Assembly: GCA_030144965.1 (NCBI GenBank)
Contig: JAMPUU010000021.1
Span: 1-64,000, forward strand
Origin: Nitrospira sp. BO4
Lineage (GTDB): Bacteria; Nitrospirota; Nitrospiria; Nitrospirales; Nitrospiraceae
DNA: 64,000 nt
Direction: 5' to 3'
The position numbers were made by a program, and so were the translations under genes. Below the pieces are notes generated by a model. It worked only from the letters and a program-made list of their open reading frames with translations, had not been told where the DNA came from and made no database searches. Below, piece by piece: positions 14,295 to 43,500 of this stretch; the first letter of the stretch is position 1; the number at the start of each line of letters is the position of its first letter.

Positions 14295-15455
14295 ATGATC
14301 AATGTTATGCCGACGCATAGCGCACCGTTCATCATCGAACCGTACATGAAGCCCAACACGATTCGTTCGCCGCTTGGGTTCATGTCGCAGGCGACGTATT
14401 GGGCGCAGTTACTTTTCCCAGGCGTAACGGTTCTGACACGGCATTTTCTGCATGTGCAGCTGCTTCTACGTGAGCTGCGACGGAAGAGCAGGACCACCGA
14501 GTCGCGGCAGGAGATTGAAAAGGTATTGCGTTCGCAGACCGTGCATCGACGTCTTGAGCGGGAATACAAAGCAGCTGTCGGAATCGAGAACGATCTCGTC
14601 ATCACGAAGATGACCTATTGGCAGCGCTATGCCTCGATGTTTGAATACTTCGGGCTGTGGAAGGCGCCTCGTACCCTGAGACCAAGAGAATTGTGGCAGA
14701 TCGTGTTCTATAGCCGGGTGCCCAGGCAATTTCGGAAATGGGTCAAGCCAGAAGCGCCCGAGAAACGTCGCCGGCGAATTGCCCATACGCTTTGGTACTT
14801 GCGATTCAAGCCGGACCTAGAGGATGCACACGGACAGCCCCAGCGAATCCCATGGTGGGTTACTGGTGAAGGTTGTCCTCGGGATGTAAGTGTGGAGATT
14901 CGGCTTAGCCGTCGGGTCTCATACGCGTTTCTCATCTGGCAAACCCTCTTTGAAGTTGGCATAAAGCTTAGGTGCCGTGGCACCGCTTTACCTAAGGCCT
15001 CGAATCGGATGTTCAATGCGTGGGAGACGGTGGAATTGCTCGAGCTCGCCACGCAAGATCCAGAGCCAAGCACTGATACCTTGAAGCGAGTCTTCAGCGG
15101 TCTGCTTTCTGCGCATGCTCACCAGCTCCAGCCTTCGATGCCGACTTGGCAGACTGTGGTTGAGCGTCAGCCTTGGCATGAGTCCTCCCTGACAAGACTC
15201 TACGACGGGAGCTCCGTAAGAGACCTAGCGGCGGTACAGGCGGCATCGCTGTTCGCAAGACTAGTCCATCTGCACCAATATTACTGCGAAAGACAGGGTA
15301 AGACGGATGCAGAGTTTATCCGTGCGAACGCCAACGGTTTCACTGCACTCAAATCGCCGAAGATCAGTGCTCAGTTTCAAGGAACGCCCTGGGGCCTGTT
15401 CGGATACAGGCTTGACCAAGCCGTGGCGCTCTACCGCTCCGGTGCACCGCCATGA
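14295..15455 (+). CDS. Unknown protein, first gene of a coupled PLD/helicase cassette
   Basis: A 386-residue basic, Trp-rich protein with no family I recognise. The first start is ATG at 14295; an in-frame ATG at 14307 (MPTHSAPFIIEP) is equally plausible, and neither has a strong ribosome binding site. The 3' end overlaps the PLD gene by four bases (ATGA), and that gene overlaps the helicase gene in the same way, so the three products are probably made in fixed ratio and work together. In cassettes of this kind the leading gene is often the sensor or specificity subunit, but that is inference. The 175 bases before it hold a weak promoter-like GATAAT and nothing else. Confidence 0.6.
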   Translation: MINVMPTHSAPFIIEPYMKPNTIRSPLGFMSQATYWAQLLFPGVTVLTRHFLHVQLLLRELRRKSRTTESRQEIEKVLRSQTVHRRLEREYKAAVGIENDLVITKMTYWQRYASMFEYFGLWKAPRTLRPRELWQIVFYSRVPRQFRKWVKPEAPEKRRRRIAHTLWYLRFKPDLEDAHGQPQRIPWWVTGEGCPRDVSVEIRLSRRVSYAFLIWQTLFEVGIKLRCRGTALPKASNRMFNAWETVELLELATQDPEPSTDTLKRVFSGLLSAHAHQLQPSMPTWQTVVERQPWHESSLTRLYDGSSVRDLAAVQAASLFARLVHLHQYYCERQGKTDAEFIRANANGFTALKSPKISAQFQGTPWGLFGYRLDQAVALYRSGAPP

Positions 15456-20795: not shown

Positions 20796-21965
20796 TCAAG
20801 AAATGGAGAATGTCCCCCCTTTTTCTGTTTCGCTCGCAGGCACAATGGCGGGCAACCCGTCGACGCGTGCCAACACCGTCAGGGGCGTCGGCACAAGGCT
20901 CCCATCTGGGCGCCTTCGGAGCCCGACGAGCCGAACGCGGTCGCCCCTAGAAACTGCCGTCACCTCTGGGTGGATGTTGGGATTCAGCGGCGCGAGCTGC
21001 ACACGTTTCCTTTCCTCGCTTCCGTTTTGAACATTGACAGTCAACGACGTGGCAGCTCCCCCGTGAATAGCGCGCGGTGGTTCATCGAGCACTCCATCGA
21101 CAACTGCCCCATCAAGCTTGCCAGACCAATCGGGGCTCACTGCGGACCAAAGTGGCGTACACACTAGCTTGAACGAGCACCACTTGCACGTCGTCGCCGA
21201 TGGATCAGCCAGTTGCTCCGGCAATGCGCGGGCAGTAATATTGGAGTTGTAGTCGTCGAGAACCGCGACCGCTTCAACGGCTTCGCGCATGCACTCTTTC
21301 GGCTCCAGTGGCACTTCGACACCGGCACCCGCAAAGGGTAACAGCACCCCGCGCGTAGGCCACCATCCAAGCACCTCTTTCACGAGGAAACCGTAGATCC
21401 GGAGCTGCCGGACATAGGCAGCCTTCACAACATCAGACTGGGAGCTTTCGTCATATTCAAAGATCGCGCCGCTCTTATAGTCGACGACCTCCCTGTGTCG
21501 GATGAGATCCGGCCTCCCGACGAGCTTTCCACCAACAGCCACGAACTGACGTTCTCGAATGGTGCCAGCGTCACCTGACCCGGTTGCACCCAATGCTGTT
21601 CCACCCGCCGAGACTTCGCGTGCCCGCAGGAGAGCACTCGCTCGAACGAGATGATAGCCTGGCCACGTTTCCGGCGAACCGAATCGTCGATTAAGCTGAT
21701 GGGCGGCGGCGCGCTGGTGTTGCGCGTCGACCGCTCTGTCCCAGAATTGCACCGCGGCTGCTTCGACATCGACTATCGACTCCAGGCAGGCGAACTTCTC
21801 GAGCACCTCGTGATACGCGGTGCCTAGCCACGCTTTTGGATTCCCAAGCACGTAGCCTGCGCTCCCGGTAGCACGCAAGAGCCCGGCGCGGAGTCGGCAC
21901 GCCCGCATCGTCTCCGCCAGAGTTGGACTCGTCGACGGGATGACGGGAAGTACCAGCTGGCTCAC
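20796..21965 (-). CDS. RecB/Cas4-like PD-(D/E)XK nuclease with Fe-S cysteines
   Basis: A 389-residue protein, last gene of the five-gene operon. The start is a GTG two bases after the stop of the DUF1998 helicase, with CGGAGG upstream; longer open frame to the right is shadow of the helicase gene. Motifs: GTAYHEVLEKF (about residues 60-70, the RecB H), KLVGRPDLIRHREVVDYKSG (about 148-167, D...DYK) and CKWCSFKLVC (about 258-267), which with another cysteine would ligate 4Fe-4S as in Cas4/AddB nucleases. The C-terminal about 100 residues look beta-rich (SRGDRVRLVGLRR), perhaps an OB-type nucleic-acid-binding domain. It likely supplies DNA cleavage to the complex. I know of no such gene in the defined Druantia gene sets. 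Confidence 0.75.
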   Translation of the reverse strand: MSQLVLPVIPSTSPTLAETMRACRLRAGLLRATGSAGYVLGNPKAWLGTAYHEVLEKFACLESIVDVEAAAVQFWDRAVDAQHQRAAAHQLNRRFGSPETWPGYHLVRASALLRAREVSAGGTALGATGSGDAGTIRERQFVAVGGKLVGRPDLIRHREVVDYKSGAIFEYDESSQSDVVKAAYVRQLRIYGFLVKEVLGWWPTRGVLLPFAGAGVEVPLEPKECMREAVEAVAVLDDYNSNITARALPEQLADPSATTCKWCSFKLVCTPLWSAVSPDWSGKLDGAVVDGVLDEPPRAIHGGAATSLTVNVQNGSEERKRVQLAPLNPNIHPEVTAVSRGDRVRLVGLRRRPDGSLVPTPLTVLARVDGLPAIVPASETEKGGTFSIS

Positions 21966-21967
21966 GA

Positions 21968-24900
21968 CTAAAATGGCCTCCGGAGCACCTCGAAGATAGA
22001 CTTCATGGTGACCTGGCAACCCGCCGCCACCGCTTGCGCGTAAGCGGCTGCGAGCTGTGGGCCGACGAAGTTGGGATCCGTGTTCCAGAGCGGATGAGTG
22101 ACGATCTCGACCTGGTTTCCACGCCGTCCCGCCTGGAGGCCACCGAACAGGACCGGCTGCCAGCCAGGCATCGCGGCGAAGTAAGGGCCTGCGGCCGCCG
22201 CGTCGAGGCCCTGCCAGTAGGGGACGGAGAAATCGATCGGCGCCGCTGGATCGAGCGCCAAGCGCGCGAGATCCAGACCCAGCCGCCAATCGAGAATGTT
22301 GTGGTACGCGAGGTTGCTGAAGTCGCGGAGGCAGTCCGGGCAGGATGTCCTGCACAGCGATCCGTGCAACGGGTTCCCCTGCGGATCCTGTTGAGCGACG
22401 AGTGGGCCATAGAATGTGTTGCTGGTCTGTCCCACAATGAAGCGCAGCAGGCTCTCGGCCTCGGCGGGCGTCCCGAAGTACGAGCTGTACCCGGCGCCGT
22501 TCTCCAGGCTGTCCGAGATGAAGATCTGGCCGATGACCTGCCCGTTCGGATCCTGCATCACCCGCAGGCCGACCTTCAGCTCGCGTTCATGAATGTCGAG
22601 TCGAACAGCAGCGGCTCGACGGAGCAGGAACCCGAGCGAGTAGAGTCCAGCCCGACCCTCAACCCGAAGCGGTACGGCGTTGACGCCTACTGGCCAGGTC
22701 TGGATTCCAAGGACAAGAACGTCCGTCGGCTTTACGGAAGCGAGCGCGCGTCGGTCTGGGGCACCTCCCGGAGCAAGAGGTGGATTGTTCACGTCGACCT
22801 TCGCGAGCGCGTCACGCGTCACCCAAGTCTCGCCCTGCGCGAGCTTCTCGAAGTCGAACAGCTGGCCCTCATTGTCGTTGATCACGTAGACGGTGTCTTG
22901 ACCACTCCAGATCTCCAAGTTCGCGACGGGCGTCATCCCGATCGGCATTACGCCCACCTTTGGGCGCGACGCGCGAGCGGTCCACTCGAACACGCCGTCG
23001 AAGTCGCGACTTGCGCCGAACCAGGTGCGGAACCCCCGCGGCTGCGAGAGCACCACCTGTTCGTAGTCCGGCGGTGCCGCTCCGCAGACCGGACACGTCT
23101 GAGCGGGGTTCTGAGATCCGTCTACCGCCTGGCATCGCCGGCAGAGTCCGATCGGCAGCGGTGGGCCGAGCGGGTTTGGTTGCTCCACAACCGCGTTTCC
23201 CTGCGGCTGATAGTCGACGACGCCGACCGCCGTGTGGATGACGCCGTCCTTCACCGTCTCCGATGACGGAGCAAACTGGCTGATCGCGATGTCGAGTTCG
23301 CGATCGACGACCCCATCGGGTGGCCACTCGTAGGCTCCTCCCGGCCTCTCATGGAAAAGGTAGCGAACTCGCGTCGGGAATCCGAACATCGGCAGCACTC
23401 CGACGTTCGCGAGGCGCTCGCTCAACGACCTCTGTGGCAAGCGGGGATCGACGGAGGCCGCGGTCACTCGCGGAACGAGTTGCGTTTGGACGTAGGTGAT
23501 CAGCGCCGCCCTTTGGGCCTGCAGTTGCGGCGTCGTGAACGAAAGCAGCACGTCGCACGTGTGCGCGATGGCAGCTTGATTGTTTTGGATCCAGTCATCG
23601 ACCAGCTGCGCGACCGTCAGGCCCGGCGGTGTGCCGGGTGGCGGCTGAGCAGGCGCAGTGCCCCAGTCAGCTGCGTCTCCGAATTCGCCGTGCACGCTGT
23701 CGCCGCCCTGCGCTGCGAATAGACCCAGCGCCGCGAAGGCTTGCCGCAGGACCTCCTTCGCGAGCACGCGCTGGAGAATCGCCTCCCGGCGCATGTCCAC
23801 GTATGGCTGCGGCGGAGGATCCGACGTGATCCGATCTGGCCGCTGGAAGTAGTAGTCATCATGGCTTCGCCCGCGGCACAGCGTGAGCGCGACCGACAGA
23901 CCGGCTCCTCGCCGTCCCGCGCGACCAACGCGCTGCTGGTAGTTGAAGCGCATCGGCGGCATGTTCGCCATCATGACGGCGAGCAAGGAGCCGATATCCA
24001 CACCGGCCTCCATCGTCGTTGTAACGCTGAGGAGATCAATCGGATCGGTGACCTGAATCTCGTCAGGGGGAGGGAGGCAGATGTCCTGGAAGAGTCGCTG
24101 GCGCTTGCGGCCGTCGTTCTTGTTCGTCTGCCCGGTAAGCTCCTCGCAGTTGAGCCGAAACAGAGGCCCTGCGTGTGTCGCCAAGTAGCTGTAGTAGTCG
24201 CGCGTGGCTTGGGCAGCCGCCAGGGGCTGCGGCGGGCCAAGGGGAATGTGGCAATCCGTGCAGACGCCTCCCGCCGCGTGCAGGTGGACCCGGCGGCATT
24301 GACCGCATTCGAAGTATGCTGTTCCCGGCCGCGCGAGGCACAAATTCTGGGCGACAAGGACGTGCTGTGTAAGCACACTCGCGCTGTTGAGATAGTTCAG
24401 CACGTCGGCGGCGAAAGTTGACGGTGTGAAGCCATGCAGCTGCGCGACCGCGGCCAGGTACTGAGCGACGTAGGCGGGAGGATTCGGTTGGCTGGCGGCT
24501 CCGTGTGTCGAGAGCCGGCGCCGCGCACCGAGCAACCGAATAGTTCCATCGGCGGCCTCTTGAACAAGGGCGCTTAGCGCTGGCATGGCGATGCGATCGG
24601 TAGTTGCGAATGCGAGCCGCAGTGACTCGAGGCTGCGGCGGCCTGAAGCGAAGACGACATCCATCACTTCCTGCAGCGATTGGTCCTGAATCCTCCGGAG
24701 GTGATCGCGCTGCTGCTGGCTGAGCTGCGCAGCCGGTCTCGCTTGCGGAATGGTTCCGGCCACGCCCCAGGTGTAGAGATCTCGCCAGCTGCCTTCCCTT
24801 GTTCGCGGAGCAGTCCAGAGAACATCCTGGGTGAAGCCGCCGGGATTCACTCCGTTGGCGAGTAGCTGCGCTGAGGCGTCGGCCGAGAGCTGGCCGATGT

Positions 24901-27529
24901 GAAACGGCCCCTGGGCAGCCCGAGCCAGAATCTGTTGTGCTGCTGCCTGGGAGGTGATGCCTGGGTGCGAGGGCGACGGCAGCTGCGCGGTTGCTGCGTT
25001 GGCTGCCATCGAGAGGGAAGCTGCCTCGGCCGGGTGTGTTACGCTAAAGGCGGTGGCGAGCGCCTGTTGCTGTGGGGACACTGGCTGTCCGCCAATTTGA
25101 GACGCGAAGGCTTGCGCGCCCGCTCCCTGGACGGCGATCGCACCGGTGATCGCTTGGCGGAGCGCATCTCGATAGTGTGAGAAACGCATGCCTGCCGAGA
25201 GTTTCGCGGCATCTTGTCGGCTATCGGAGAACACCACGAGCTTTCGCGACTGGCTGGCGGTGGCGGGCGCGATGTTTCGGAGAAGGGCATCCGAAAGCAC
25301 CTGCGCGATCTTCTGGAAGCCGGTGCGAAGAGTGCGAACGGGTGACCCGATCTGGCGCCGAGACCAGTCAGCGTCACATCGAGGGCAGCGCGCTGGATAC
25401 GCCTGCCGCGCGATGTCCCCCGCGGGTGGAGCCGGCGAGTGCATCGCCGGCACGTAGTAAAGGTACCCGGGCCCGCCGAGCGCGACCTTGCCGTCCGCCG
25501 ACGTGAAACGCGCGGCTCGCCACGCTCTGGGAACTCCATCTTGAGTCCACTGGGGTGACGCTGGCGTCACTCCAGGTGCTCCGGGCCAATACACGGCATA
25601 TCGGAGGTAGTCGCGATCCATCGAGGCCATGTCTGGGGACGCCTCAAGATCCGGATGGTCGGGGCTGAGGTACCACTCATTGGGATTCAACCCCGTGTCT
25701 CGCCGGTAGCCGCCGAAGAAGATATCGCCGCAGGCTTCGCAGTAGAGCAGCTCAAGCACGCGCGAGCCGCAACCGCAGGTGAGCGTCGGGACGTAGTGCA
25801 GCGCCCCGGCGGGAGGTGCGCCGTTGCGAGGCGGGACCTGCGTACACCCCGGGTTCGTGCATGCCCACAGCCCCTGCAGGTTGCGGTAGATGATGTGCGC
25901 GCGAACAGGGAGAGGGGCTGTGCCGCTCGCGCCTCTGGCTGCAGACAGGCCGGCGAGAAGACCTTCCACCGCTTCGATGCCGTCGGGAAGCGGAAGACCG
26001 GGGTACATCACGGACGCGATCTGCTCGGGGAATCTCGGCTCCAACTGGGGAGCGCTCGCGGGCCCCGCTGCACATGCCAAGCGTAGTGCGTCATCCGCCA
26101 TCACGTGGGCGAGGGCGGAGTCGAGTGTCAACTCCGGGCTCGCTCCGGCTGGCGCCGCAGGCGCGCCGGTTGCGTTCTGAAATGCCGTCGCAGCAGTCGC
26201 AGTCAGCGACGGCGACGCACGCAGATCATTACGCAGCTGGCGCAGCGCTGCCACGCTCGCGCGTACGGGGCCGAACGCACCAGGGTTGACCGGCTGTGTC
26301 GCTGCACCGACGATCCGAAACCGATTGCGATCGCGCCCGAAGAACGACTCGAGGTACTGAAGGCCCGCCGCGCCACTGGCTATTGACGCGCTCGAAGCGA
26401 TGATGCGCAGCTGATTCGAGTCCGGCGCTAGACCGATGCGGTCGAGGAGCACGCGAACGAGATACGCGACCTCGGTGCCGGGGGTTCCGCGATAGGTGTG
26501 CAGCTCATCGACGACGAGATGGAAGATGTGCGAAGGATCTTGCTGGAGCCACTGCCTCGTCTGATCGAAAACCTGCGCCTCGACGCTGCGCATCAGCATG
26601 ATGTTCAGCATCGAGTAGTTCGTGATCATGACGTCCGGGGGGTGGTCCTGCATATCCCAGCGCGACCACATCTCACCGCCGTCCATGGCCGCGAAGAACC
26701 GTGCCGCAGGGGTTCCTGCAACGAGCTGGGAGTCTCGATGCGCATCAGCCAGCTCGGCGCGCAACCTGCCGGTCGCTGCCGACGTACGGCTCCCCGACAC
26801 CGGCGTTCGCCCTGTGTAGCGCCCAAAGTAGATCCGATTCGCTGCACGGTGCGCTTGGAGCCACGCTCGGGCACCCGCGCCATCAAGGGCGTCACGCAGA
26901 CGCGCGAGCTGGTCCTCGACGAGCGCGTTGAGCGGGTAGAGGATGAGCGCCCTGACCGCGGGCGTCCGGTTCTCATGCGCTCGCTGCGGAAGGCGGGGAT
27001 CCCAGCGCCGCCGGCTTCCTTGCATGGACCAGTGATTCCACCAGTCCCACTGCGCGGGTCGCAGCCCGGGCGCCGGCCAGGTCACCGACTCCCGAGCGAG
27101 TTCGGCGGCAATCGGAAGCAGAAAGCACTCGGTCTTGCCCGACCCGGTTCCCGTTGTCACCACGACATCGTGGCCGTGGACGACCGACTCCTCGAACACG
27201 GCACGCTGGTGCGTGTACAGTTCGCGCGGCTGCCCGTTCGGAAGGGTCGGAGGAAAGAGCCCCTGCGAAACGAACGCGGACAAGTCCGTGACGACGGGCT
27301 GAGGCCAGACCGGCCCGAGGAGAGCCTGCGCCGCTTGTGAGAACGTTTGGCCAGAGAGCTGATATGCCGGGACGGGCTCGATGAGTGGGCGCCGGTATAG
27401 CCTCCCATCCGCGTCGAGCAGCGCACGCCGTTCGGCGACGAGGTCCGGGTATCTGAGATCAAACGGACTGTCGAGATACCGGAAGTAGGTGTCTCGGAGA
27501 TCTTCGAAGATGGCGAGCGGGTTACTCAT
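21968..27529 (-). CDS. Giant DUF1998 helicase, DruE-like
   Basis: An 1853-residue protein. The ATG at 27529 overlaps the previous stop (ATGA) and has AGGAG upstream; the open frame upstream is shadow. Motifs: Walker A VTTGTGSGKTECFLLP (about residue 126), Walker B VVDELHTYRG (about 340), LVVFSDSRQDAAKLSAG (about 765), TTTMEAGVDIGSL, and motif VI QQRVGRAGRRGAG (about 1203). Zinc-type cysteine clusters occur near 560-600 (CTNPGC, CGCG, CEACGD) and 1130-1150. The C-terminal DUF1998/MZB signature is CRTSCPDCLRDFSN (about 1725). Size, architecture and linkage to a cytosine methylase match DruE, the hallmark of Druantia antiphage systems; DrmA/DrmB of DISARM are the alternative relatives. Very rich in G+C at third positions, hence many long antisense frames. 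Confidence 0.8.
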   Translation of the reverse strand: MSNPLAIFEDLRDTYFRYLDSPFDLRYPDLVAERRALLDADGRLYRRPLIEPVPAYQLSGQTFSQAAQALLGPVWPQPVVTDLSAFVSQGLFPPTLPNGQPRELYTHQRAVFEESVVHGHDVVVTTGTGSGKTECFLLPIAAELARESVTWPAPGLRPAQWDWWNHWSMQGSRRRWDPRLPQRAHENRTPAVRALILYPLNALVEDQLARLRDALDGAGARAWLQAHRAANRIYFGRYTGRTPVSGSRTSAATGRLRAELADAHRDSQLVAGTPAARFFAAMDGGEMWSRWDMQDHPPDVMITNYSMLNIMLMRSVEAQVFDQTRQWLQQDPSHIFHLVVDELHTYRGTPGTEVAYLVRVLLDRIGLAPDSNQLRIIASSASIASGAAGLQYLESFFGRDRNRFRIVGAATQPVNPGAFGPVRASVAALRQLRNDLRASPSLTATAATAFQNATGAPAAPAGASPELTLDSALAHVMADDALRLACAAGPASAPQLEPRFPEQIASVMYPGLPLPDGIEAVEGLLAGLSAARGASGTAPLPVRAHIIYRNLQGLWACTNPGCTQVPPRNGAPPAGALHYVPTLTCGCGSRVLELLYCEACGDIFFGGYRRDTGLNPNEWYLSPDHPDLEASPDMASMDRDYLRYAVYWPGAPGVTPASPQWTQDGVPRAWRAARFTSADGKVALGGPGYLYYVPAMHSPAPPAGDIARQAYPARCPRCDADWSRRQIGSPVRTLRTGFQKIAQVLSDALLRNIAPATASQSRKLVVFSDSRQDAAKLSAGMRFSHYRDALRQAITGAIAVQGAGAQAFASQIGGQPVSPQQQALATAFSVTHPAEAASLSMAANAATAQLPSPSHPGITSQAAAQQILARAAQGPFHIGQLSADASAQLLANGVNPGGFTQDVLWTAPRTREGSWRDLYTWGVAGTIPQARPAAQLSQQQRDHLRRIQDQSLQEVMDVVFASGRRSLESLRLAFATTDRIAMPALSALVQEAADGTIRLLGARRRLSTHGAASQPNPPAYVAQYLAAVAQLHGFTPSTFAADVLNYLNSASVLTQHVLVAQNLCLARPGTAYFECGQCRRVHLHAAGGVCTDCHIPLGPPQPLAAAQATRDYYSYLATHAGPLFRLNCEELTGQTNKNDGRKRQRLFQDICLPPPDEIQVTDPIDLLSVTTTMEAGVDIGSLLAVMMANMPPMRFNYQQRVGRAGRRGAGLSVALTLCRGRSHDDYYFQRPDRITSDPPPQPYVDMRREAILQRVLAKEVLRQAFAALGLFAAQGGDSVHGEFGDAADWGTAPAQPPPGTPPGLTVAQLVDDWIQNNQAAIAHTCDVLLSFTTPQLQAQRAALITYVQTQLVPRVTAASVDPRLPQRSLSERLANVGVLPMFGFPTRVRYLFHERPGGAYEWPPDGVVDRELDIAISQFAPSSETVKDGVIHTAVGVVDYQPQGNAVVEQPNPLGPPLPIGLCRRCQAVDGSQNPAQTCPVCGAAPPDYEQVVLSQPRGFRTWFGASRDFDGVFEWTARASRPKVGVMPIGMTPVANLEIWSGQDTVYVINDNEGQLFDFEKLAQGETWVTRDALAKVDVNNPPLAPGGAPDRRALASVKPTDVLVLGIQTWPVGVNAVPLRVEGRAGLYSLGFLLRRAAAVRLDIHERELKVGLRVMQDPNGQVIGQIFISDSLENGAGYSSYFGTPAEAESLLRFIVGQTSNTFYGPLVAQQDPQGNPLHGSLCRTSCPDCLRDFSNLAYHNILDWRLGLDLARLALDPAAPIDFSVPYWQGLDAAAAGPYFAAMPGWQPVLFGGLQAGRRGNQVEIVTHPLWNTDPNFVGPQLAAAYAQAVAAGCQVTMKSIFEVLRRPF

Positions 27530-28485
27530 CGGAGCTCCTGGCGGAGAAGTGCCGCCGCAATCGCGGCGATGTCCTGCGGAATCTCGGGGTACTGGAGAGA
27601 GCCGCCTCGTAGGCCGCTGCCCTCGTACGAAGGTGGCGATCCCGAGCACAAGATCAGGGCTCGCTCTACCAAGAATGGCGGGCGGCAGCTTGCCGGCATT
27701 GAGAGCGTTCGGTCTTGGGCATCGTACCGGAGCACCTGGCGCCGGCGCTGGCGCAGAACGAGGTACTTGCCAACCTGTGCGGGGATTCGTGCTGCAGCGC
27801 CCCTGCAGCAGAAGAGCACATGGCGCTGGTGCCGGAGAGCGAAGCGAAATAGACCGGCCGGGGCAGTGCGAGCATCGTCCAGCGTTGCCGAGCGCCAGAC
27901 GAGGTCGTCGGCGGAGAACCGATCGATTCTCCAGTCTGAACCGAAGGGCAGCTCGGTTTGGTAGCGCACCCTTGGGTCGTCCACCGGTGGGAGGCTCGCA
28001 AGAAGTGCTGCTGGCGCGTCATCTTGCAAGAGAAATCCGGCCCCCTCTGCGACGGCGGTTAGCGTGTCCCGTGTGTTGGCGGCAATCAGGATCTGGTCGG
28101 GATACGAAGCGAACTCGACGACCCGGAGTTCTGCTCCATGAGTAGCGGCGGCTGAACGCAGGCGATCGGTGAGCGTGACCGATCTCGCTCCGGCTACGAC
28201 GCCGAGCCAGCCACGCGCATGTCGCGTGACCGCCAGGGACGGAGGCGTGACTCGCCACTCCGCTCCCTCGCCGGCACCGGCAAGGAACTCGGCGTGCCCA
28301 ACCCGTTGCAGGTTGAACCTAAGCGTCTGGTAGAGAGGCAGGGCAAACTGATCAGGCGCGTCGTCGCCTTCTCCCTCGATTTCGGTGTCCGCTGTTAGGT
28401 GAAGCTCCTCGACGGCAGCGCGGAACTGAGCCCATGAACCGTAGCGCCGTGCGGACATCCAGAGGAGAAGAGCGTTCGCGCTCAT
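27526..28485 (-). CDS. Unknown component of the DruE-like operon
   Basis: A 319-residue protein with no recognised domain. The start MSANALLLWMSARRYGSWAQ at 28485 overlaps the preceding stop (CGATGA), and its own stop overlaps the helicase start the same way, so it is translationally coupled on both sides. The frame could open 16 codons earlier but that lies inside the preceding gene. The start (helix with RRYGSW..FR.AVEEL) and a C-terminal proline-rich stretch are the only features. By position it corresponds to one of the two small unknown subunits (DruF/DruG) in Druantia type II; I cannot confirm homology. Confidence 0.65.
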   Translation of the reverse strand: MSANALLLWMSARRYGSWAQFRAAVEELHLTADTEIEGEGDDAPDQFALPLYQTLRFNLQRVGHAEFLAGAGEGAEWRVTPPSLAVTRHARGWLGVVAGARSVTLTDRLRSAAATHGAELRVVEFASYPDQILIAANTRDTLTAVAEGAGFLLQDDAPAALLASLPPVDDPRVRYQTELPFGSDWRIDRFSADDLVWRSATLDDARTAPAGLFRFALRHQRHVLFCCRGAAARIPAQVGKYLVLRQRRRQVLRYDAQDRTLSMPASCRPPFLVERALILCSGSPPSYEGSGLRGGSLQYPEIPQDIAAIAAALLRQELR

Positions 28486-30659
28486 CGCCAGCTTCTCCGG
28501 AGTGTCTTTGCGTAGCGCTTGTAGCTCTTCCACAGGGCTGCAATCTCCACCCGCGAGGGCACGGCCTGCAGTCCCTTCCTACTTGCCTCGAGGATGGCCT
28601 CGCACCACGCGTGAGTCGCCCGGGTCAGATCACGGCGCCTAACGGCGCACCCGCTGCGGTGCGTAGCGGACGTCTGGTCGGCTCGATTGACCGCCGCCGG
28701 TGGTCCGATCAGAAGTACGCGCGCCGCGCGCTTGTCGCAGTGAAGAGCGTCAGCCGGGACAGCCCAGATGGGGTGGAACCAGGGAAAGCCAACACAGAAT
28801 CCCGCGCGGACGTCCTTGCGAGGCGTGCAGACCTCAATCTCGCCTGGTCTCGCTCCAAGCAAGATTGGATTCGTAGCCACAACCACTATCGGGCAGCTGT
28901 CGGCTCGTGCGTCACGCGGCGGGCGAACAAGCACACCACAGATCGCGGGTCGCGACTGTGTACCACTGGCCGTTGGTTCGCCGAGTGACCAAGAGTAGGC
29001 ATCCCACGGATCCCATGCCTCGGCCCCGCTGCGAATCGCGTATGCGCGCGTGGCGCTCGTGCACCAAACGGTGTGCTCACCAGCAGAGTCCCAACCAGGG
29101 GCAACATATCCCCCTTCGGGGGATCGCGTGGCCTTCTGTCCGTCGATGGTGACAACCCCGAGCATGCTCGTTTCGCCGAGAAGCTCAATGGTGGGCGGAA
29201 AACTGCTTAGCCACGTCTGGCGGTCAATCCGGATTCCTCCAGTTAACGCGATCTCAATATCTGGAAGCGGCCTGAGCGCGTCCATGATGTCGCCGTCTGG
29301 GCTTGGCGCAACCGGGTGCTGGGGACGCACGCCGCGCAGGCCAACCCAACCAGCCGGAATACCGCTGTCAGCGTGCAGCTCTGTCGGTTCGGGACTTTTG
29401 GTGAGCGCGATCGCCGCACGTACATCTGGCAGACGCTCAGCGACACAGAAGACGACATGCTCCTCGCCAATGACCAGGCGCGGTCTACTGACGAAGCCAT
29501 TTAGTTCGCCATGGCGAGCCAACACGAAAATGCCTCGACCGCTAAGGGACAGCCGAGCAGCGCCGCCATCGGGAAGTGCACCAACCCACTCGATCCCCTC
29601 CCTGAGCAGGCGCCCCATGTCGGGCCGCATCACGTCCTGGTACCACTCATCCTGGAGCGCCTCAAGCTCGAGAGGAGAGCCTGAGCCTCCCACTACGAAC
29701 TCGGTCGGCATCCCGACAGCGCGGCGTGGCAGGAGCGAAACCCGGCAGAAGCCCGCCTTCTCAAACACAAGACGTAGCTCGATCGGCGTCGCGCGATTGC
29801 GCGCATCTCGCCCCGGACTCGGCGATCCAAGTGGACGGTGCGGCGCGGGCTTACGTGCCGTCGCACGGTATTGTCTCGGAGCTCTTGGTGCAGGCAGAGG
29901 CGGCGCCACTCGTGCAGCCACCACGGCCCCGTCCCGAGCTTGTGTCACTTCAAGAAGGACATCCGGCTGGGCCGTAGTGCGTGTCTGCTCCTCAACTCGC
30001 CTGCGTAGGTTTTGCTCCTGAAGCTGCGTTTCTTGCGCCACCGCCGTGCGTGATTCCTCTTCAGCGAGGCGGCGCGTCTCTTCGAACTCACGCCGTAGAG
30101 CCTCCCGCTGCGCCGCAGCACGTGTTACTTCATCGAATTGCCGACGTGCCTCTTCAGCTTCGCGCTCGGCCGCCGCGCGCGATTCTTCTGCGGATAGTTG
30201 GCGTGCTTCCTCTGCCTGACGCTGTGCCTCGTGCTTCGCCGTGGCGCTCGCTTTATCTTTGCGATGCGACTCCACTTGTGACCCGCTTAGGAAATCTGGT
30301 TCTATAGCATTTGAGGCATTTTCCTCACTCCGGCCTCCCTCCTCCTCATCCGTGGCCTGCGATGGGGTTGTGATTGATATCTGCTTCCGCAGACCTTGCT
30401 CGGGGTGGGTCGTTATTTCTTTAATGGGCGCTGCTGCCTCTTCTGGCCCCGTCTGCGTTAGGTGTGGCTCCAATCCTATATCGCCATTGACAATCGGTGC
30501 TTTACCAGATAATGGCCCCCTCTCTGCTGACCCCTTCTCTGGTCGATGGGAGTTATTCTCCTGACGAGAAGCTGGACGTTTTTTGAAGAGCCAAGTAGCA
30601 GCCGCAGCGACAAATATTATCGTGAGAGCTGCGAGTAGATTATTGAAGCCACCGCCCAT
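28482..30659 (-). CDS. Membrane-anchored coiled-coil protein of the DruE-like operon
   Basis: A 725-residue protein. Residues about 5-25 (NNLLAALTIIFVAAAATWLF) form one transmembrane segment followed by basic KKR, so the bulk is cytoplasmic. Residues about 130-235 are a long heptad-like, Glu/Arg/Ala-rich coiled coil (repeats of EEARR...EESR.AAEREA). A proline- and arginine-rich hinge follows to about 290, then a folded C-terminal domain of about 430 residues with no family I recognise. It lies 39 bases after the methylase gene and overlaps the next gene by 4 bases. By size and order it could match DruG or DruF. It suggests that the system is tethered to the membrane, which is inference. Confidence 0.7.
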   Translation of the reverse strand: MGGGFNNLLAALTIIFVAAAATWLFKKRPASRQENNSHRPEKGSAERGPLSGKAPIVNGDIGLEPHLTQTGPEEAAAPIKEITTHPEQGLRKQISITTPSQATDEEEGGRSEENASNAIEPDFLSGSQVESHRKDKASATAKHEAQRQAEEARQLSAEESRAAAEREAEEARRQFDEVTRAAAQREALRREFEETRRLAEEESRTAVAQETQLQEQNLRRRVEEQTRTTAQPDVLLEVTQARDGAVVAARVAPPLPAPRAPRQYRATARKPAPHRPLGSPSPGRDARNRATPIELRLVFEKAGFCRVSLLPRRAVGMPTEFVVGGSGSPLELEALQDEWYQDVMRPDMGRLLREGIEWVGALPDGGAARLSLSGRGIFVLARHGELNGFVSRPRLVIGEEHVVFCVAERLPDVRAAIALTKSPEPTELHADSGIPAGWVGLRGVRPQHPVAPSPDGDIMDALRPLPDIEIALTGGIRIDRQTWLSSFPPTIELLGETSMLGVVTIDGQKATRSPEGGYVAPGWDSAGEHTVWCTSATRAYAIRSGAEAWDPWDAYSWSLGEPTASGTQSRPAICGVLVRPPRDARADSCPIVVVATNPILLGARPGEIEVCTPRKDVRAGFCVGFPWFHPIWAVPADALHCDKRAARVLLIGPPAAVNRADQTSATHRSGCAVRRRDLTRATHAWCEAILEASRKGLQAVPSRVEIAALWKSYKRYAKTLRRSWR

Positions 30660-30698: not shown

Positions 30699-32357
30699 TC
30701 ACAAGTGCAGCTTACTCTCCGACTTTGATTGCCACAGAGCGCATCCTGTCCGGATCGGACAACTGGCGCATTCTGGTTGTCGGGCCTTGCAGTTCGCTGC
30801 ACACACATCGAGTATGGCCAGATTAAATTCTCGTGACCGCTTTGCCGGAATAAGCGCATCAGCGATTTGTTGGAGACGGCGATCACGGGCGGGATTATTG
30901 GACGGGCGGTACTTCAGGCCGAAATATCGAACGAGAAATCGGGCAACATTGGTGTCTATGACTGCAAATGGCTGGTCAAAAGCGAAGCTTAGTGTGGCCC
31001 GAGCTGCATAGTGGCCTACCCCAGGTAATGCCAGCAAGGCCTGAAAACATTGGGGAACATTGCCTTTGTGATACCGAACGATGGCACGTGCGAGTTTGAT
31101 AAGTTCGCCTGCGCGATACGTTAAGCCCAGCGGAGTTACGATTTGCTTAAGTTCGCGCCGCGATGCGGTCGCGAGCGCATTCCAGTTCGGATAGCGGCTC
31201 ATGATCTGCCGGAATGCGTCAACCACGACGCCCGTTGCAGCAGTTTGTTGGAGAAGCTTTTCTGCAACCAAGATCCGGAAGGGATCTCGAGTCTGGCGCC
31301 AGGGGAACGGCCGCTGGTTATTTTCGAACCAGCAGAGGAGGAAACGCTGCAGTTCTTCTACCGGAGCGTAAACCGATTGTCTGATGGCATTAGCCACGGC
31401 GGCAGCTAAAGGAGGTGGTACTGCGTTGGAAATTTGAGTTACTTGATCACTCAATGACCCATGAAGGACGTAGCGTTTAGGAAACCCTTGAAGAAGCATC
31501 GCCTCTAGTATGGTGAGGCGACGTCTACCAGCCGGATGAATGTGAATTTCCCGATTCCCGTAAGCAACTGTAAAGCTCGGCTTGTTCCAGCGAAGCCTCT
31601 TGAATGAACGTCCGTTTCCGTGCATTCCGTTCTTGAACTTTGGCGAGCGGGGGACCATGGTCCAGTGGTTTGGATGATACGGAATATCCTCCGGCTTTAG
31701 ATTCCTGTGATAGAAAGCGGCCGGAGGCAAATCACGAATTACGTCCCCTACTGTTGGTGGCTCCGTTCCCCCTTTCGGAAACTGGAACTGCACCCAAGGA
31801 TACTTGTACCGATTCACTCCAACTATTAGTATTCTGCGGCGTCTTTGCGGGACCCCAAATTCCCCAGCATCAAGATTAGCGACAAAAAGATTGAACCCTG
31901 CTCGCTTCAGTTCTCTCTGGATACTTTGAAACCAGTGTGTATGACGCTCGGTGAGCAGCCCCAGGACATTTTCAAATACAACAAAGTCGAGGTCGAATTC
32001 CCTGTTAAGTTCATTAATTTGTCTGGCAAAGATTACCCCAAGACGTGATCGCGGGTCACGACGCTTTAATGATCTATTGCTGGATGAAAAACTTTGGCAC
32101 GGTGGCCCTCCAATGATACCTCGTGGTACTAGTTCAGCAGAAGCCTTTCGTACCATCTCGACCAACTCAGAACCTGATAACTTGCTCAAATCGCATTGCA
32201 CAGCGACTTTGGCTGGATCGTTCTGGTTATAGGTCTCAACGGCCGCTCTGTTGTCGTCTAGTGCCAGCATAGGCAAAAACCCACACTGACGAAAACCAAG
32301 ATCCATCCCCCCAGGTCCGGAGAACATACTGATTATTGGAAGTCTATTTTCGATCAT
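30699..32357 (-). CDS. C5-cytosine DNA methyltransferase fused to a MIG/MutY-type DNA glycosylase
   Basis: A 552-residue fusion. Residues 1 to about 330 are a C5-MTase: motif I MFSGPGGMDLGF, IV GGPPCQSFS (catalytic Cys about 85), VI FVVFENVLGLL (about 128), VIII VPQRRRRILIVG (about 170), IX RRRLTILEAMLLQGFP (about 285) and X QISNAVPPPLAAAVANAI (about 310). Residues about 345-552 are an HhH-GPD glycosylase: FPWRQTRDPF, AEKLLQQTAAT, LPGVGHYAARATLSFA (about 442), VIDTNVARFLVRYFG with the catalytic Asp, and the 4Fe-4S loop C-X6-C-X2-C-X5-C (about 522-540). The residue after VGH is Tyr, as in thymine-DNA mismatch glycosylase MIG, not Ser (MutY) or Lys (EndoIII). First gene of the operon; the methylase corresponds to DruM of Druantia II. 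Confidence 0.88.
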   Translation of the reverse strand: MIENRLPIISMFSGPGGMDLGFRQCGFLPMLALDDNRAAVETYNQNDPAKVAVQCDLSKLSGSELVEMVRKASAELVPRGIIGGPPCQSFSSSNRSLKRRDPRSRLGVIFARQINELNREFDLDFVVFENVLGLLTERHTHWFQSIQRELKRAGFNLFVANLDAGEFGVPQRRRRILIVGVNRYKYPWVQFQFPKGGTEPPTVGDVIRDLPPAAFYHRNLKPEDIPYHPNHWTMVPRSPKFKNGMHGNGRSFKRLRWNKPSFTVAYGNREIHIHPAGRRRLTILEAMLLQGFPKRYVLHGSLSDQVTQISNAVPPPLAAAVANAIRQSVYAPVEELQRFLLCWFENNQRPFPWRQTRDPFRILVAEKLLQQTAATGVVVDAFRQIMSRYPNWNALATASRRELKQIVTPLGLTYRAGELIKLARAIVRYHKGNVPQCFQALLALPGVGHYAARATLSFAFDQPFAVIDTNVARFLVRYFGLKYRPSNNPARDRRLQQIADALIPAKRSREFNLAILDVCAANCKARQPECASCPIRTGCALWQSKSESKLHL

Positions 32358-38134: not shown

Positions 38135-38986
38135 ATGGACATGCAGGCGGTCTGGTGGAAGCCTCGAGATGTGTTTATTAGCGACACAACTTTTCATCCC
38201 CGTCCTCCGTTCGAACCATACAATCCCTTCGTGCATTACCACCCGCACACCCTCAAGCAGACGACACGGTCTACAAAATCGCTCTACTACCAGTTCCTTC
38301 AAGTAGACCCTGAAGATCAAAAGGCCATTGCTAAATTCTGCTGTGACTATGGAATGCTGGGTCGTCTCGATAATGCTGGTTGGATCATGTGGGGGATGGA
38401 GAAACCCGGATTCGCTGACTCTCTCCATATTATGGGCTTGAACGAGCCATCACCGTTTGGACTCCTTTATGAACAAGATATGAGAGGAACAATGCTCCGC
38501 CAGATTGCGGGAATTCCCCCGGACCCATCACTCTGTATACCCATGGAATGGGACGATTTCAGGAAGGTACAAGGTCAGCTTCGCGAGGCTACAGAGTGGG
38601 CATCGACCATGGCGAGCAAGCGAAAACCTAAGGAGAAGGGAAAAGCTCAAACAGCCCTCCACCAGAGATTGCGCTGGAAACTATCAATGGTACGCCCCAA
38701 TGTCTCGAGGGATAACAAGAAGGCAAAATGGCGCTTTACCTGGGACATTGGTTCACTCGAGGCAGCCTTCTACCTGATGCTGCTCTCGGACGTATGTGGT
38801 GGCGGTCAGATACGTAACTGCGAGTTATGCGGAACGTTTTTTCTAGGCATTACCAGTCGCGGGCGGTTCTGCTCAAATCGCTGCCTCAATACATTTAAAG
38901 TTCGGCGTTTCAGAGCCAAGCGTAAACAACGCATGTCAAAACAACCTGCCAGTAAGGAGGTGCTCGATGGCTCGTCAGGACGGTAG
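38135..38986 (+). CDS. Zinc-finger hypothetical protein coupled to integrase
   Basis: A 283-residue protein whose C-terminus has a CGNR-like zinc motif: NCELCGTFFLGITSRGRFCS followed by NRCLNTFKVRRFRAKRK (about residues 227-263), i.e. two CxxC/CxxxC pairs and a basic tail. This is typical of DUF/CGNR proteins that bind nucleic acid. The N-terminal 200 residues are unassigned. It overlaps the integrase gene by 20 bases, so the two are co-expressed. Confidence 0.65.
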   Translation: MDMQAVWWKPRDVFISDTTFHPRPPFEPYNPFVHYHPHTLKQTTRSTKSLYYQFLQVDPEDQKAIAKFCCDYGMLGRLDNAGWIMWGMEKPGFADSLHIMGLNEPSPFGLLYEQDMRGTMLRQIAGIPPDPSLCIPMEWDDFRKVQGQLREATEWASTMASKRKPKEKGKAQTALHQRLRWKLSMVRPNVSRDNKKAKWRFTWDIGSLEAAFYLMLLSDVCGGGQIRNCELCGTFFLGITSRGRFCSNRCLNTFKVRRFRAKRKQRMSKQPASKEVLDGSSGR

Positions 38987-40088
38987 AGATCGTGGCGTGG
39001 TTTTCAAGAATGGGACTTGGTGGGTCCGTTTCTATAACGAAGGCAAGGAAGTCTGGCGGAAATGCGACAACAAGTCTCAGGCGCGCAGCCTCTACGGCAA
39101 ATTCAAAGCGCAAATCCGGGAAGAGAAATACTTTCCGAAGGCTAAGAAACGCGAGCCGCTGTTATTCAAGGCTGTCGGGAAAGACTATGAGGCATCACTA
39201 AACAGGGATGGGCGTCGTCCTGGTGATAACCACGCCAGGATTGAGTTTTGGGTCGATCGATTCGGCAAACTGGATATCGAGGCCATTACGACATCCCAGA
39301 TTGAGCAAGCCTTGTCGCATCTGCGGGCTCCGCTCATCGAGCGATCCGGCCGGCTGGCAAAGGGGACTAAACGGTCGATCGAGACGGCTCGTCGATATTA
39401 TGTCGTGCTCCATGCCATTCTGGAGAGAGCCAGGAAGCGATTGAAGGAAGAGAAAGTCCTCATGATCAACCCCGCCTCAGACATTATGTTGAAAAAGGCG
39501 GATAACACATTGGTCCGGTATCTGACACCAGACCAGAAACAAGCCCTGTTCGATGCTCTGCCCGCCCGATATCATCCCATCGTACTGACCGCCCTCAATA
39601 CAGGTATGCGCCGTGGAGAGCTTTTACGTTTGACCTGGGCTGATGTGGATTGGTTCGCCGGGACGATCAAGATCCGCCAAACGAAAACCGATGAACCGCG
39701 CCACGCCCCCATGAACAGCGTGGTGCAACGAGAATTGCTGGCGCTCAAGAATAAGACAAACCCCTCCCTATCCGACCCGGTGTTTCCCTTTTACCCTCGG
39801 TATCTTAGTCGGGCCTTTCAACGCGCCGTTATCAAAGCACAGCTTGCGCCGTTCAGATTCCATGACTTGAGGCACTGTTTTGCCAGCAGTCTCGCGAGGC
39901 TAGGTGCCAACGATAGGACTCTTATGGAAGCCGGTGGATGGGCATCCCCTGCCATGCTGAAACGCTACGTCCACCTTGGACCCTCTACTGTTTGGCAGGC
40001 AGTGGAGAAGCTGGCTGAATTATCACCCTTGAATAAGAACGATAATAAGCTGTTTCTCAAGGAAGAAGAGGTAAAGTTAAACCAATGA
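38967..40088 (+). CDS. Tyrosine recombinase / integrase
   Basis: A 373-residue phage-type integrase. It has an N-terminal arm-binding-like region (VFKNGTWWVRFYNEGKEVWR), a core-binding SAM-like domain (about 60-170) and a catalytic domain with R in TALNTGMRRGELLRLTW (about 215), K in IKIRQTKTDEPR (about 238), HxLRH as FHDLRHCFASSL (about 295-306), H/W in MEAGGWAS and the nucleophile in LKRYVHL (about 332). GGAGG is well placed before the ATG. It is the only intact integrase in the island, but lies about 34 kb from the left att and 14 kb from the right, with no visible att repeat beside it. Confidence 0.9.
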   Translation: MARQDGRDRGVVFKNGTWWVRFYNEGKEVWRKCDNKSQARSLYGKFKAQIREEKYFPKAKKREPLLFKAVGKDYEASLNRDGRRPGDNHARIEFWVDRFGKLDIEAITTSQIEQALSHLRAPLIERSGRLAKGTKRSIETARRYYVVLHAILERARKRLKEEKVLMINPASDIMLKKADNTLVRYLTPDQKQALFDALPARYHPIVLTALNTGMRRGELLRLTWADVDWFAGTIKIRQTKTDEPRHAPMNSVVQRELLALKNKTNPSLSDPVFPFYPRYLSRAFQRAVIKAQLAPFRFHDLRHCFASSLARLGANDRTLMEAGGWASPAMLKRYVHLGPSTVWQAVEKLAELSPLNKNDNKLFLKEEEVKLNQ

Positions 40089-40500: not shown

Positions 40501-43500
40501 TCAGGTGAACTCAATATGTTCGACGAATACTAGACGGTGGCCTTTGCGAGTCGGTGTCTTGTCGTACGGGTGATCGTCATCGATCAAATACTCTTCGTAT
40601 TCGGCGATGACTAGACGATGACGATCGCCTGTTGGAAATTCAGGGAAAACAATGTCACCCTCCCAAAGGGTCTGCCACATATGGATGAGGTCTACCAGTC
40701 GACTCGGGGTCAGCCGGGCGACATCCCTTGCGGAGAATAGGTCGCGCGTCTGTAATCGTTCCTCCGAAGAGACCACTCGACCAAAGATCGACTCAAGGGC
40801 CACGGGTAATTCTGAGGTCGAAGTAGCCGGAACTGGGATACGCTGTGAGATGATCACCTCCGAAACCTTATACCATCCGAAGTCCTCACCCCACCGTGTA
40901 TCAAGCCGTTCGACCCATACTTGGACGATGCTACGCTCAGAGACAGTGGCTGGCGTCAGGTACTCGACTCGACCTGTCAAGCGGTTAATCAGAGGCGTGG
41001 AATCTGCGTCTGTCGCCTCGCGATGGGCGCTGGACTCGCTATAGCTTACGCCGAAGACAGCCACACGGATTTTCCGTGCATCCGATGCTGGCGTGACATT
41101 TACCCACCGATCAGCTGTCAAGGCCATGATATCGGAGAGGACGACGTTCGAGAGATGCACGTCAGGACTCGATGTCGGCTGATATCGAGCGAGCGCCAGA
41201 CGAATGAAGGGGAAATAGGCAGCGGTGCTCGCTATCTCGACGTCGCAGTACCACAACTGTCGCGCTTCGTCATAGAAAACATCGTGGGGTGCCACATCGA
41301 CGCGACTGCCGCGGCCTTGCAATCCCGAGATCGGAAGGGAGCTGACAAGAAATGGACCGGGGCGTTGGTCCTTCTCGTCGACCGGTGCGTTCGGAGGCAG
41401 CCAGGCGCCTGTCGGATCGGGTGCTGTCCGCGCAAGCGGGAAGTGCGCGAGCGTTGGCGCCAGTCCTGGCACGAACCCGGAAGCCCAGATGGGATCGTTG
41501 CCCCACAACGTCACATAATTCTTATACGGTGCGCCAGCAGGAGCGGTGTTGGGATCGTCGACGAATTCCTTTGGGGGAAGCACAACACCGAGCATCTCAC
41601 CATAGCCCGATGCGTTCCAGTCACGATCGAGATAGATGCGCAATCCCCCGCCGCGCCGCCAACTCAAGAAATTGCCTTGTTCGTCGACTTCACGGCGCCA
41701 CGCAAAGGTCGGCACGACGTACAGAACCTTCGGCGCCGGTGGTGGTGCAGAGCTGGGAACCCACGTAACCTGACGAGTTCCTGTGATCTTGATGTTCACA
41801 TCGGTGGGCACACGCTTACCGTCCTGGAGTGTCGTCAACAGCGAGCCGGGTAAGAACTCGCGGAAACGCGATGTCGCGTCGAACCAATACTCGATCCGGC
41901 GATAGCGGGTGTCGTGAAATTCGTGTGCCTTCGCCGCGATGCGCTGATGCACGGCGCCGTTGATGCCGATCATGTCGGATGAGGAAATAGTATGCTCAGG
42001 TGTTCCGGGCGAAATGCCGTTGTTGAGCGCGTAGTGTTGAGGTCCGGTGATCTTCACCTGGAACGCGACATCTCGCCGGTGGCGATCGACAGGACCTTGG
42101 CTGTCTTTCAACGGATCGTCACTGGGTTCGTGCCACTCACCGTATAGGTCGAGTCGATCGGTACTGTCTATGTTGCACCGTACCTGGGCAAGCGGCAAGG
42201 CCGAGGTCTCTCCAAACGAGCGGTCGAGTATCGACAATGCTACGAAGTCGGGATTGAGTAGGGGGCGCTGCACTGCATGCACCACCTCCACGAGAGTCCA
42301 TGGCGTGAGCATCCAGTGTTGGCCTGAAAGCGCACGATCGCGTTGCGCATTCTGGTCGGCCGCCGCAAGCCATTGGAACACACCCATCAATGAAAGTGCC
42401 TCGGGCGCGAGTGCCATCGATAGGCGCAGCTTCGCCCAGACGGCTTTGGGTAACGGCACGCGAAGCCTATGCGCCGTCGCATCATAGTAGGGTGATTCGT
42501 TCGGGTGATCATACACCTCTATCACAAAAGGTCGTGCCTCCGGCCAACTGGTGCTTGAATACAGGGGAATGCGAATGATCTTCGTATCAGCGATATTCGG
42601 GTGATCGAAAACACGCACAGCAACTTCGGTTGCCAATGGATCCGGCAGATAGGTAAGGGCACGCCCGTTCTCGTACACCGCGAACGAGGTTTGTGCGCCG
42701 GCTGTATCCAGTGGTCCCTGAGTCAGTAACTTCTCCTCACGGATCGCGGCTAACGGATTGCGTGGATCGACATCCATTTGATGCGCGAGCAAATTAAACA
42801 AGTCGGCGTTGACCTTACCTTCCGCATCGAGCATGCCGTGTTGCTCTGCATCGCGCACACTCACCTGTGGCGGTGCCGCAGCGCGATGTGCAACTTGAGC
42901 GGTGGTTACGAGGTTTCCGGCTGCGGTGTCATTGAAACTGCGAATGGCGATGCGATTCATCGACTCGCCTTCGAGCGGTCGCTCAACCGTTCCCGACTCG
43001 GAAAGCAACGCCACCACCGGAGCTGCCACCGGCTCGTAGCGCAAATAGGGACGGGCATGGATCAGAGGCTGCTCATTACCATAGTCCTGCGCCAGCGGAG
43101 CAAGCGAATTGCCCGCGAGGTCGACTGCCCGCGCACGAATCCAATACGAGCGTCCGAAGCGCAGTCGAGGCAGCGATCCCTTGACCGGGACAAAGGACGA
43201 CTTGAAGTTCAGGCCTGGTGGAACCTTAGCGTCGCTGTCGTCGCGCGTTTTGTCAACTGTGTCGTCGACACTGATAGCGCGTCCGGGCGGACGCGCGGCT
43301 AGGCTCCAGCCGCTCCACGACACCAGTATTTCGTGCAGGTAAAGAATGTCGGTATTGGAAGTCTCGTCGCTGGAGCGCGTCGCTGCGAGCCGTACGGTGC
43401 TCTCCTCTTCCGGCACAACGACAGGAGGAACGTCGCCCAATTCATAGCGCGCAGTGCGCTGGCACAACGAATGCCACCGAGCAGTCACCGAGTCCCAAAT

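What the first reader, a model, noticed from the sequence alone, without database searches (positions are those of the whole stretch)
30699..32357. C5-cytosine methyltransferase fused to a MIG-type mismatch glycosylase
The sequence shows all main C5-MTase motifs and then a complete HhH-GPD domain with the 4Fe-4S cysteine spacing C-X6-C-X2-C-X5-C. The residue after LPGVGH is Tyr, as in the thymine-DNA glycosylase MIG, not Ser (MutY) or Lys (EndoIII). Known context: 5-methylcytosine deaminates to T, and MIG in an archaeal plasmid is encoded beside a cytosine methylase to repair the resulting T:G pairs. A fusion would let one protein write the mark and repair its mutagenic by-product. Inference: the host pays for constant methylation of the defence site and this domain limits the damage.
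Basis: partly seen in the sequence, partly recalled or inferred. Interest (0 to 1): 0.8.

Follow-up and report, generated by a model that had tools for sequence, protein, structure and literature searches.

The report
DNA-marking enzyme fused to mismatch-repair enzyme
A bacterial anti-virus gene cluster carries one protein that joins a DNA-marking enzyme (which adds methyl groups to cytosine) to an enzyme of the kind that removes the mutations such marks cause, and the same two enzymes sit side by side as separate genes in related defence clusters of other bacteria.

Summary
Confirmed: window 30699-32357, minus strand, encodes one 552-aa protein with an intact C5-cytosine methyltransferase (1-329), a 7-residue linker and a complete HhH-GPD/4Fe-4S glycosylase (337-545). 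The conclusion survives on better evidence. The substrate-pocket residues that separate MIG from MutY are Phe351, Ala374 and Leu513 here (MutY: Leu, Val, Gln). The domain falls outside the MutY clade with methyltransferase-linked MIG-type glycosylases. The best solved relative is MIG (1kea). The gene heads a Druantia type IV-like operon (fusion-DruF-DruL-DruE-DruK). The same pair, unfused, occurs in DruE-bearing loci of two Chloroflexota genomes, beside a Druantia II-like plasmid locus (interrupted there), and in a DISARM locus. The fusion in this order was found nowhere else; a Bacteroidota MAG has the reverse order in one frame, broken by a stop. Most likely the protein writes the self mark and removes T (or U) opposite G left by deamination of the marked cytosine. 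Catalysis, specificity and the benefit of fusing are inferred, not shown. I rate it a new variant of a known kind (MIG beside a C5-methyltransferase).

The parts
30699..32357 (-). whole fused gene, 552 aa: C5-cytosine methyltransferase + MIG-type HhH-GPD glycosylase
31371..32357 (-). methyltransferase domain, residues 1-329; Cys87 at 32097-32099, ENV 31965-31973, QRRRR 31833-31847, motif X 31404-31430
   Evidence: PF00145 1.5e-51; DruM2 profile 8.7e-78; catalytic residues invariant in 14 homologues; coordinates
31350..31370 (-). linker YAPVEEL, residues 330-336; no own start codon for the glycosylase
   Evidence: low-confidence model shows one continuous helix 315-346
30723..31349 (-). MIG-type glycosylase domain, residues 337-545
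   Evidence: PDB 1kea best by sequence (4.7e-37) and by fold Z 27.3, rmsd 1.8, 215 aligned, tied with MutY
31236..31238 (-). Ala374 = MIG A50 (MutY Val45)
   Evidence: PMC2714593
30819..30821 (-). Leu513 = MIG L187 (MutY Gln182)
   Evidence: PMC2714593
31008..31010 (-). Tyr450 = MIG Y126 (shared with most MutY, not diagnostic)
30954..30956 (-). Asp468 = catalytic Asp, MIG D144
30741..30791 (-). 4Fe-4S ligands C523, C530, C533, C539
28482..30659 (-). DruF-like protein, 725 aa; 39 bases after the fusion gene
   Evidence: PDLC00054 DruF4 5e-4; 42% identical to the DruF-like protein of L047 over residues 259-725
27526..28533 (-). DruL
   Evidence: PDLC00057 DruL4 6.5e-25
21968..27529 (-). DruE, YprA/DUF1998-type helicase; likely start is Met41 of the listed ORF 21968-27649
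   Evidence: PDLC00051 DruE4 E=0, profile match starts at residue 41
20796..22355 (-). DruK-like PD-(D/E)XK protein, overlapping the end of DruE as listed
   Evidence: PDLC00060 1.2e-28; PF12705 3.8e-14

Best explanation
The protein is a bifunctional self-marking and repair enzyme of a Druantia type IV-like defence operon. The N-terminal domain methylates cytosine at C5 in a recognition site, marking host DNA as self for the DruE-containing system. 5-methylcytosine deaminates to thymine, leaving a T:G pair that ordinary uracil glycosylase cannot mend. The C-terminal MIG-type domain flips out and removes T (or U) opposite G, leaving an abasic site for base-excision repair, so the mark is kept without C-to-T mutation at the marked sites. 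Shown here: the fusion, intact catalytic residues of both domains, MIG-type pocket residues, and recurrence of the pair in DruE and DISARM loci. Inferred: both activities, the T:G specificity, that the mark protects from the Dru proteins, and that fusion helps by matching dose or location.
For: Both domains complete. Residues equivalent to MIG F27/A50/Y126/D144/L187 are F/A/Y/D/L. The 20 MutY-type sequences of the own genome and its relatives have L27, V50, Q187, while 13 of the 14 methyltransferase-linked glycosylases compared have A or G at 50 (the exception, L117, has Y) and none has Q at 187. MIG A50V+L187Q turns T/G into A/G preference (PMC2714593). In the tree MutY lies on one side of a branch (100/99) and all MTase-linked glycosylases on the other; the window pairs with the DISARM-linked one, L152 (95/90). 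The pair recurs unfused: L037 Chloroflexota in the same operon order, MTase (48%)-glycosylase-DruF-DruL-DruE, with one in-frame TAG between the pair; L161 Chloroflexota, DruE end-DruK-glycosylase/MTase; L144 Alisedimentitalea, beside a Druantia II-like locus; L152 Caldilineaceae, DISARM DrmA/DrmB + MTase + glycosylase, 46%. Among DruE loci whose surroundings could be read, the glycosylase occurs in 4 of 7 with a C5-MTase and in 0 of 9 without (one-sided hypergeometric p = 0.019; loci). The own genome has separate MutY and Nth genes, so the domain is not a displaced housekeeping enzyme, and no Vsr was found.
Against: No activity data. R47 of MIG is Gln371 here, as in MutY. Fold comparison cannot tell MIG from MutY (Z 27.3 against 27.0). 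Most DruE loci examined lack the glycosylase and many lack a C5-MTase, so neither is essential to the helicase system. PADLOC defines Druantia IV as lacking DruM (PMC8565338). The gene is 51% GC against 62-65% for druF/L/E, so it may be a later, loosely coupled addition. The co-occurrence count is small, and some loci were found through the MTase search.
Confidence: 0.7

Rival explanations
1. The glycosylase domain is a MutY-like A:G/A:oxoG glycosylase that happens to be fused to the methyltransferase and does general oxidative repair.
For: Same fold class with near-equal scores; NCBIfam's best hit is the mutY model, below cut-off; Gln371 as in MutY.
Against: V45 and Q182 of MutY are Ala and Leu here; outside the 100/99 MutY clade; no MutY C-terminal oxoG-recognition domain, as the protein ends about 13 residues after the last Fe-S cysteine; the genome has its own MutY.
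Confidence: 0.1
2. The glycosylase is an effector: it removes bases from incoming phage DNA (uracil, modified pyrimidines or unmarked sites), making abasic sites, in the manner of Brig or R.PabI-type restriction glycosylases.
For: It sits in a defence operon; base excision as defence has precedents (Brig1 PMC11078745; Brig3 PMC13160076; restriction glycosylases PMC10273834).
Against: Brig3 has another fold (AAG-like); the nearest kin here are MIG-type enzymes beside ordinary C5-MTases, among them pFV1 MIG; the domain is absent from most DruE loci.
Confidence: 0.12
3. The glycosylase domain is non-catalytic, used only as a DNA-binding or dimerising tail of the methyltransferase, or the fusion is a chance or assembly joining without function.
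For: The fusion in this order is unique among 98 relatives, 395 genomes of the phylum, 400 Chloroflexota genomes, 72,556 plasmids and 50,697 phage records.
Against: Catalytic Asp, Glu366, Tyr and all four Fe-S cysteines are kept; no start codon that would serve a separate glycosylase; the same two genes are neighbours in related operons.
Confidence: 0.08

Closest known systems
Mig.MthI (MIG), thymine/uracil-DNA glycosylase of plasmid pFV1, PDB 1kea, beside an NgoPII-type R-M system
   Same: Same fold and pocket residues F/A/Y/D/L; encoded near a C5-cytosine methyltransferase
   Different: Separate gene in pFV1; about 33% identical; MIG has Arg47 where the window has Gln371; R-M rather than Druantia setting
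Druantia type IV (PADLOC: DruE, DruF, DruL)
   Same: DruE4 and DruL4 models match strongly; DruF4 weakly; DruK-like nuclease present
   Different: Type IV is defined as lacking DruM/DruG (PMC8565338); here a DruM-like methyltransferase is present and fused to a glycosylase; DruF has an unusual N-terminal part
Druantia type II (DruM, DruF, DruG, DruE)
   Same: The methyltransferase's best PADLOC profile is DruM2 (8.7e-78)
   Different: No DruG found; DruL present; glycosylase fusion
DISARM with MIG-type glycosylase (Caldilineaceae, L152/L052)
   Same: Its glycosylase is the nearest relative of the window's (46%, 95/90 sister, shared one-residue insertion) and it follows a C5-MTase
   Different: Separate genes; DrmA/DrmB instead of DruE; methyltransferase only 32% identical
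Vsr with Dcm (very short patch repair)
   Same: Same job proposed: repair of T:G from deaminated 5mC next to the writing enzyme
   Different: Vsr is a nicking endonuclease of another fold (general knowledge); none found in this genome

Membership tests
C5-cytosine DNA methyltransferase (PF00145) | Motifs I, IV (Cys), VI (ENV), VIII (QxRxR), X in order | tested here: met
   Pfam 1.5e-51; residues; invariant in 14 homologues
C5-cytosine DNA methyltransferase (PF00145) | Methylates cytosine C5 in a defined site | not testable with these tools
   needs protein or methylome
MIG-type thymine-DNA glycosylase | HhH-GPD fold with 4Fe-4S cysteines and catalytic Asp | tested here: met
MIG-type thymine-DNA glycosylase | Pocket residues A50 and L187 (MutY V45/Q182) | tested here: met
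   Ala374, Leu513; PMC2714593
MIG-type thymine-DNA glycosylase | Separates from MutY in a tree | tested here: met
   MutY on one side of a 100/99 branch; order among MIG-types unresolved
MIG-type thymine-DNA glycosylase | T:G and U:G excision | not testable with these tools
   no assay
MutY | V45 and Q182, own MutY clade, C-terminal oxoG-recognition domain | tested here: not met
   Ala and Leu; outside the clade; protein ends after the Fe-S loop
Druantia type IV | DruE4 and DruL4 present in one operon | tested here: met
Druantia type IV | DruF4 present | tested here: inconclusive
   weak profile hit 5e-4 over part of the protein
Druantia type IV | Lacks DruM and DruG | tested here: not met
   a DruM-like methyltransferase lies 39 bases upstream in the same direction; hence 'type IV-like'

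The most novel reading that the evidence does not exclude
A self-proofreading methyltransferase. The methyltransferase's target-recognition region brings both activities to the same sites, so the fusion is a sequence-directed T:G repair enzyme that stands in for Vsr; and MIG-type repair is a recurrent built-in part of helicase-based defence systems (Druantia, DISARM) that mark self with 5-methylcytosine.
Probability: 0.35. Interest if true: 0.72.

Novelty: new variant of a known kind. Interest (0 to 1): 0.57.

Why it matters
Defence by 5-methylcytosine marking carries a mutation cost to the host. If the reading is right, some Druantia and DISARM systems carry their own remedy, and here it is welded to the writer. 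That would make the cost of a defence mark directly measurable by knocking out one active site in one protein, and it would give a single-chain bacterial parallel to the physical link between a DNA methyltransferase and thymine-DNA glycosylase reported in mammals (Dnmt3b-TDG, cited in PMC9266487).

Tried and rejected
Tyr after LPGVGH as a marker of MIG: rejected, since all MutY here carry it. Fold search to tell MIG from MutY: tied. Full-length AlphaFold model: good for the methyltransferase but poor for the glycosylase, because the alignment held only one row there; solved by folding that domain alone (pLDDT 88.6). An alignment of mixed single-domain rows misaligned the glycosylases and was not used. 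Thermus plasmid hit H1 looked like a fusion by tblastn but is two overlapping genes in different frames. Empty-site test against the same-species genome failed: the right flank gave no match there. Two DruE searches gave no answer from the machine; a shorter query worked. Viral scans with glycosylase alignments gave one unfused MTase+MIG pair, L117, and nothing. No paper found on a C5-MTase-HhH-GPD fusion (open-access library only). An idea that the fusion is the host's only C5-MTase was refuted: a second lies on contig C7.

Full report
What is there. The ORF lies on the minus strand, 30699-32357. It codes for 552 residues without interruption. Residues 8-326 match DNA_methylase (1.5e-51) and 369-488 HhH-GPD (1.2e-11). 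All main C5-MTase motifs and all four Fe-S cysteines are in place. The methyltransferase ends where stand-alone homologues end, and after the seven residues YAPVEEL the glycosylase begins where stand-alone glycosylases begin. Between them there is no stop and no usable start: GTG321 lies in the methyltransferase and has no visible ribosome-binding site, and TTG363 lies within the glycosylase. An assembly error cannot be excluded without reads, but a simple lost stop would have left a glycosylase with no start codon.

Which glycosylase. In the own genome's MutY and in those of 19 relatives the same position is Tyr, and Chang et al. note that Tyr is present in B. stearothermophilus MutY (PMC2714593), so Tyr excludes Nth (Lys) but not MutY. 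The same paper names better markers: V45 and Q182 of E. coli MutY against A50 and L187 of MIG, with the double change A50V/L187Q turning MIG towards A/G. The window has Ala374 and Leu513 there, and Phe351 at MIG F27. Across the sequences gathered, 13 of 14 glycosylases that lie beside a C5-MTase have Ala or Gly at 50 and none has Gln at 187; the MutY-type sequences of this lineage have Val and Gln. MIG R47 is Gln371 here, a MutY-like feature. In a maximum-likelihood tree MutY lies on one side of a branch (100/99) with all MTase-linked proteins, the window's included, on the other; its nearest kin is the DISARM-linked glycosylase of L152 (95/90), with which it also shares a one-residue insertion. 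Branching among the MIG-type proteins is otherwise unresolved and several branches are long. The best PDB match by sequence is MIG 1kea (4.7e-37). A model of the domain (pLDDT 88.6) matches 1kea with Z 27.3, rmsd 1.8 A over 215 residues, tied with MutY structures, so fold alone does not decide.

Setting. Thirty-nine bases downstream on the same strand follow DruF-like, DruL, DruE and DruK-like genes. PADLOC's Druantia type IV is DruE+DruF+DruL without DruM (PMC8565338); here the methyltransferase's best PADLOC profile is DruM2, so I call the operon type IV-like. The fusion gene has 51% GC against 62-65% for druF, L and E, which suggests a separate origin. A tyrosine integrase lies at 38967-40088. 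A genome of the same species lacks both the fusion and DruE, as expected of a mobile locus, but I could not show an empty site.

How often. No fusion in this order was found in 98 relatives, 395 genomes of the phylum, 400 Chloroflexota genomes, 72,556 plasmids or 50,697 phage records; a partial scan of 84,980 species gave none. The same pair of genes unfused is another matter. In the Chloroflexota MAG L037 the order is methyltransferase (48% identical), glycosylase, a DruF split in two, DruL, DruE; the two genes share a frame with one TAG between them. In a second Chloroflexota genome (L161) they lie divergently behind DruE and DruK. On the plasmid of Alisedimentitalea (L144) a methyltransferase, an MvaI/BcnI-type endonuclease and an interrupted glycosylase follow a Druantia II-like DruE. 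In the Caldilineaceae MAG L152 a DISARM pair DrmA/DrmB is followed by a C5-methyltransferase and a glycosylase 46% identical to the window's. A Bacteroidota MAG (L069) has a glycosylase and a C5-methyltransferase in one frame in the reverse order, with one stop inside the methyltransferase. Ordinary neighbours occur on Thermus, Caldicellulosiruptor, haloarchaeal and pFV1 plasmids.

Does it track with DruE? Of 16 DruE loci with readable surroundings, 7 have a C5-methyltransferase (window, L037, L161, L144, L145, L149, L150) and 4 of these have the glycosylase; of 9 without one (L143, L146-L148, L167-L170, L173) none has it (p = 0.019). L047 has DruF, DruL, DruE (66%) and a methyltransferase, but its contig ends 41 bases later, so it was not counted. 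The glycosylase thus follows the cytosine methyltransferase rather than DruE itself. The sample is small, and L161 came in through the methyltransferase search.

Mechanism. Given two intact active sites and the association of MIG-type enzymes with C5-methyltransferases, the best reading is that one protein writes 5-methylcytosine as a self mark and removes T (or U) left opposite G by deamination. That the mark protects the host from the Dru proteins, that the enzyme is T:G-specific, and that joining the domains gives an advantage are inferences. Whether the fusion brings repair to the methylated sites is open; the full-length model draws one continuous helix (315-346) across the junction, but with low confidence there.

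Novelty. MIG beside a methyltransferase is known (pFV1). I found no report of a C5-MTase-HhH-GPD fusion or of MIG-type enzymes in Druantia or DISARM, in an open-access library only. I therefore rate it a new variant of a known kind.

Noticed in passing
window 28482-30659 (-): The DruF-like protein starts with a hydrophobic, membrane-type stretch and a long charged, repetitive stretch outside the DruF4 profile match; only its C-terminal part resembles DruF.
   Followed up: partly
window 14295-19650 (+): A PLD-nuclease gene (ZacB-like) and a helicase gene (ZacC/DISARM-like) form a second defence-like cluster just beyond the Druantia-like operon.
   Followed up: no
window 5820-12069 (+): Adjacent PD-(D/E)XK and UvrD-helicase/nuclease genes, AddAB-like.
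   Followed up: no
L069:6197-8134: Bacteroidota MAG: MIG-type glycosylase and C5-methyltransferase in one reading frame in the reverse order, broken by one stop inside the methyltransferase.
   Followed up: partly
L152:4358-12045: DISARM locus with a C5-methyltransferase and a MIG-type glycosylase; the MTase resembles DruM2 more than DrmMII.
   Followed up: partly
L144:19184-21038: Druantia II-like plasmid locus followed by an MvaI/BcnI-type restriction enzyme and an interrupted MIG-type glycosylase.
   Followed up: no
G000 contig C7:10194-11582: A second C5-cytosine methyltransferase (544-aa frame) in the window's genome; no Vsr found.
   Followed up: no
window 40501-48527 (-): Two very large adjacent proteins (1446 and 1228 aa) without any Pfam match.
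   Followed up: no
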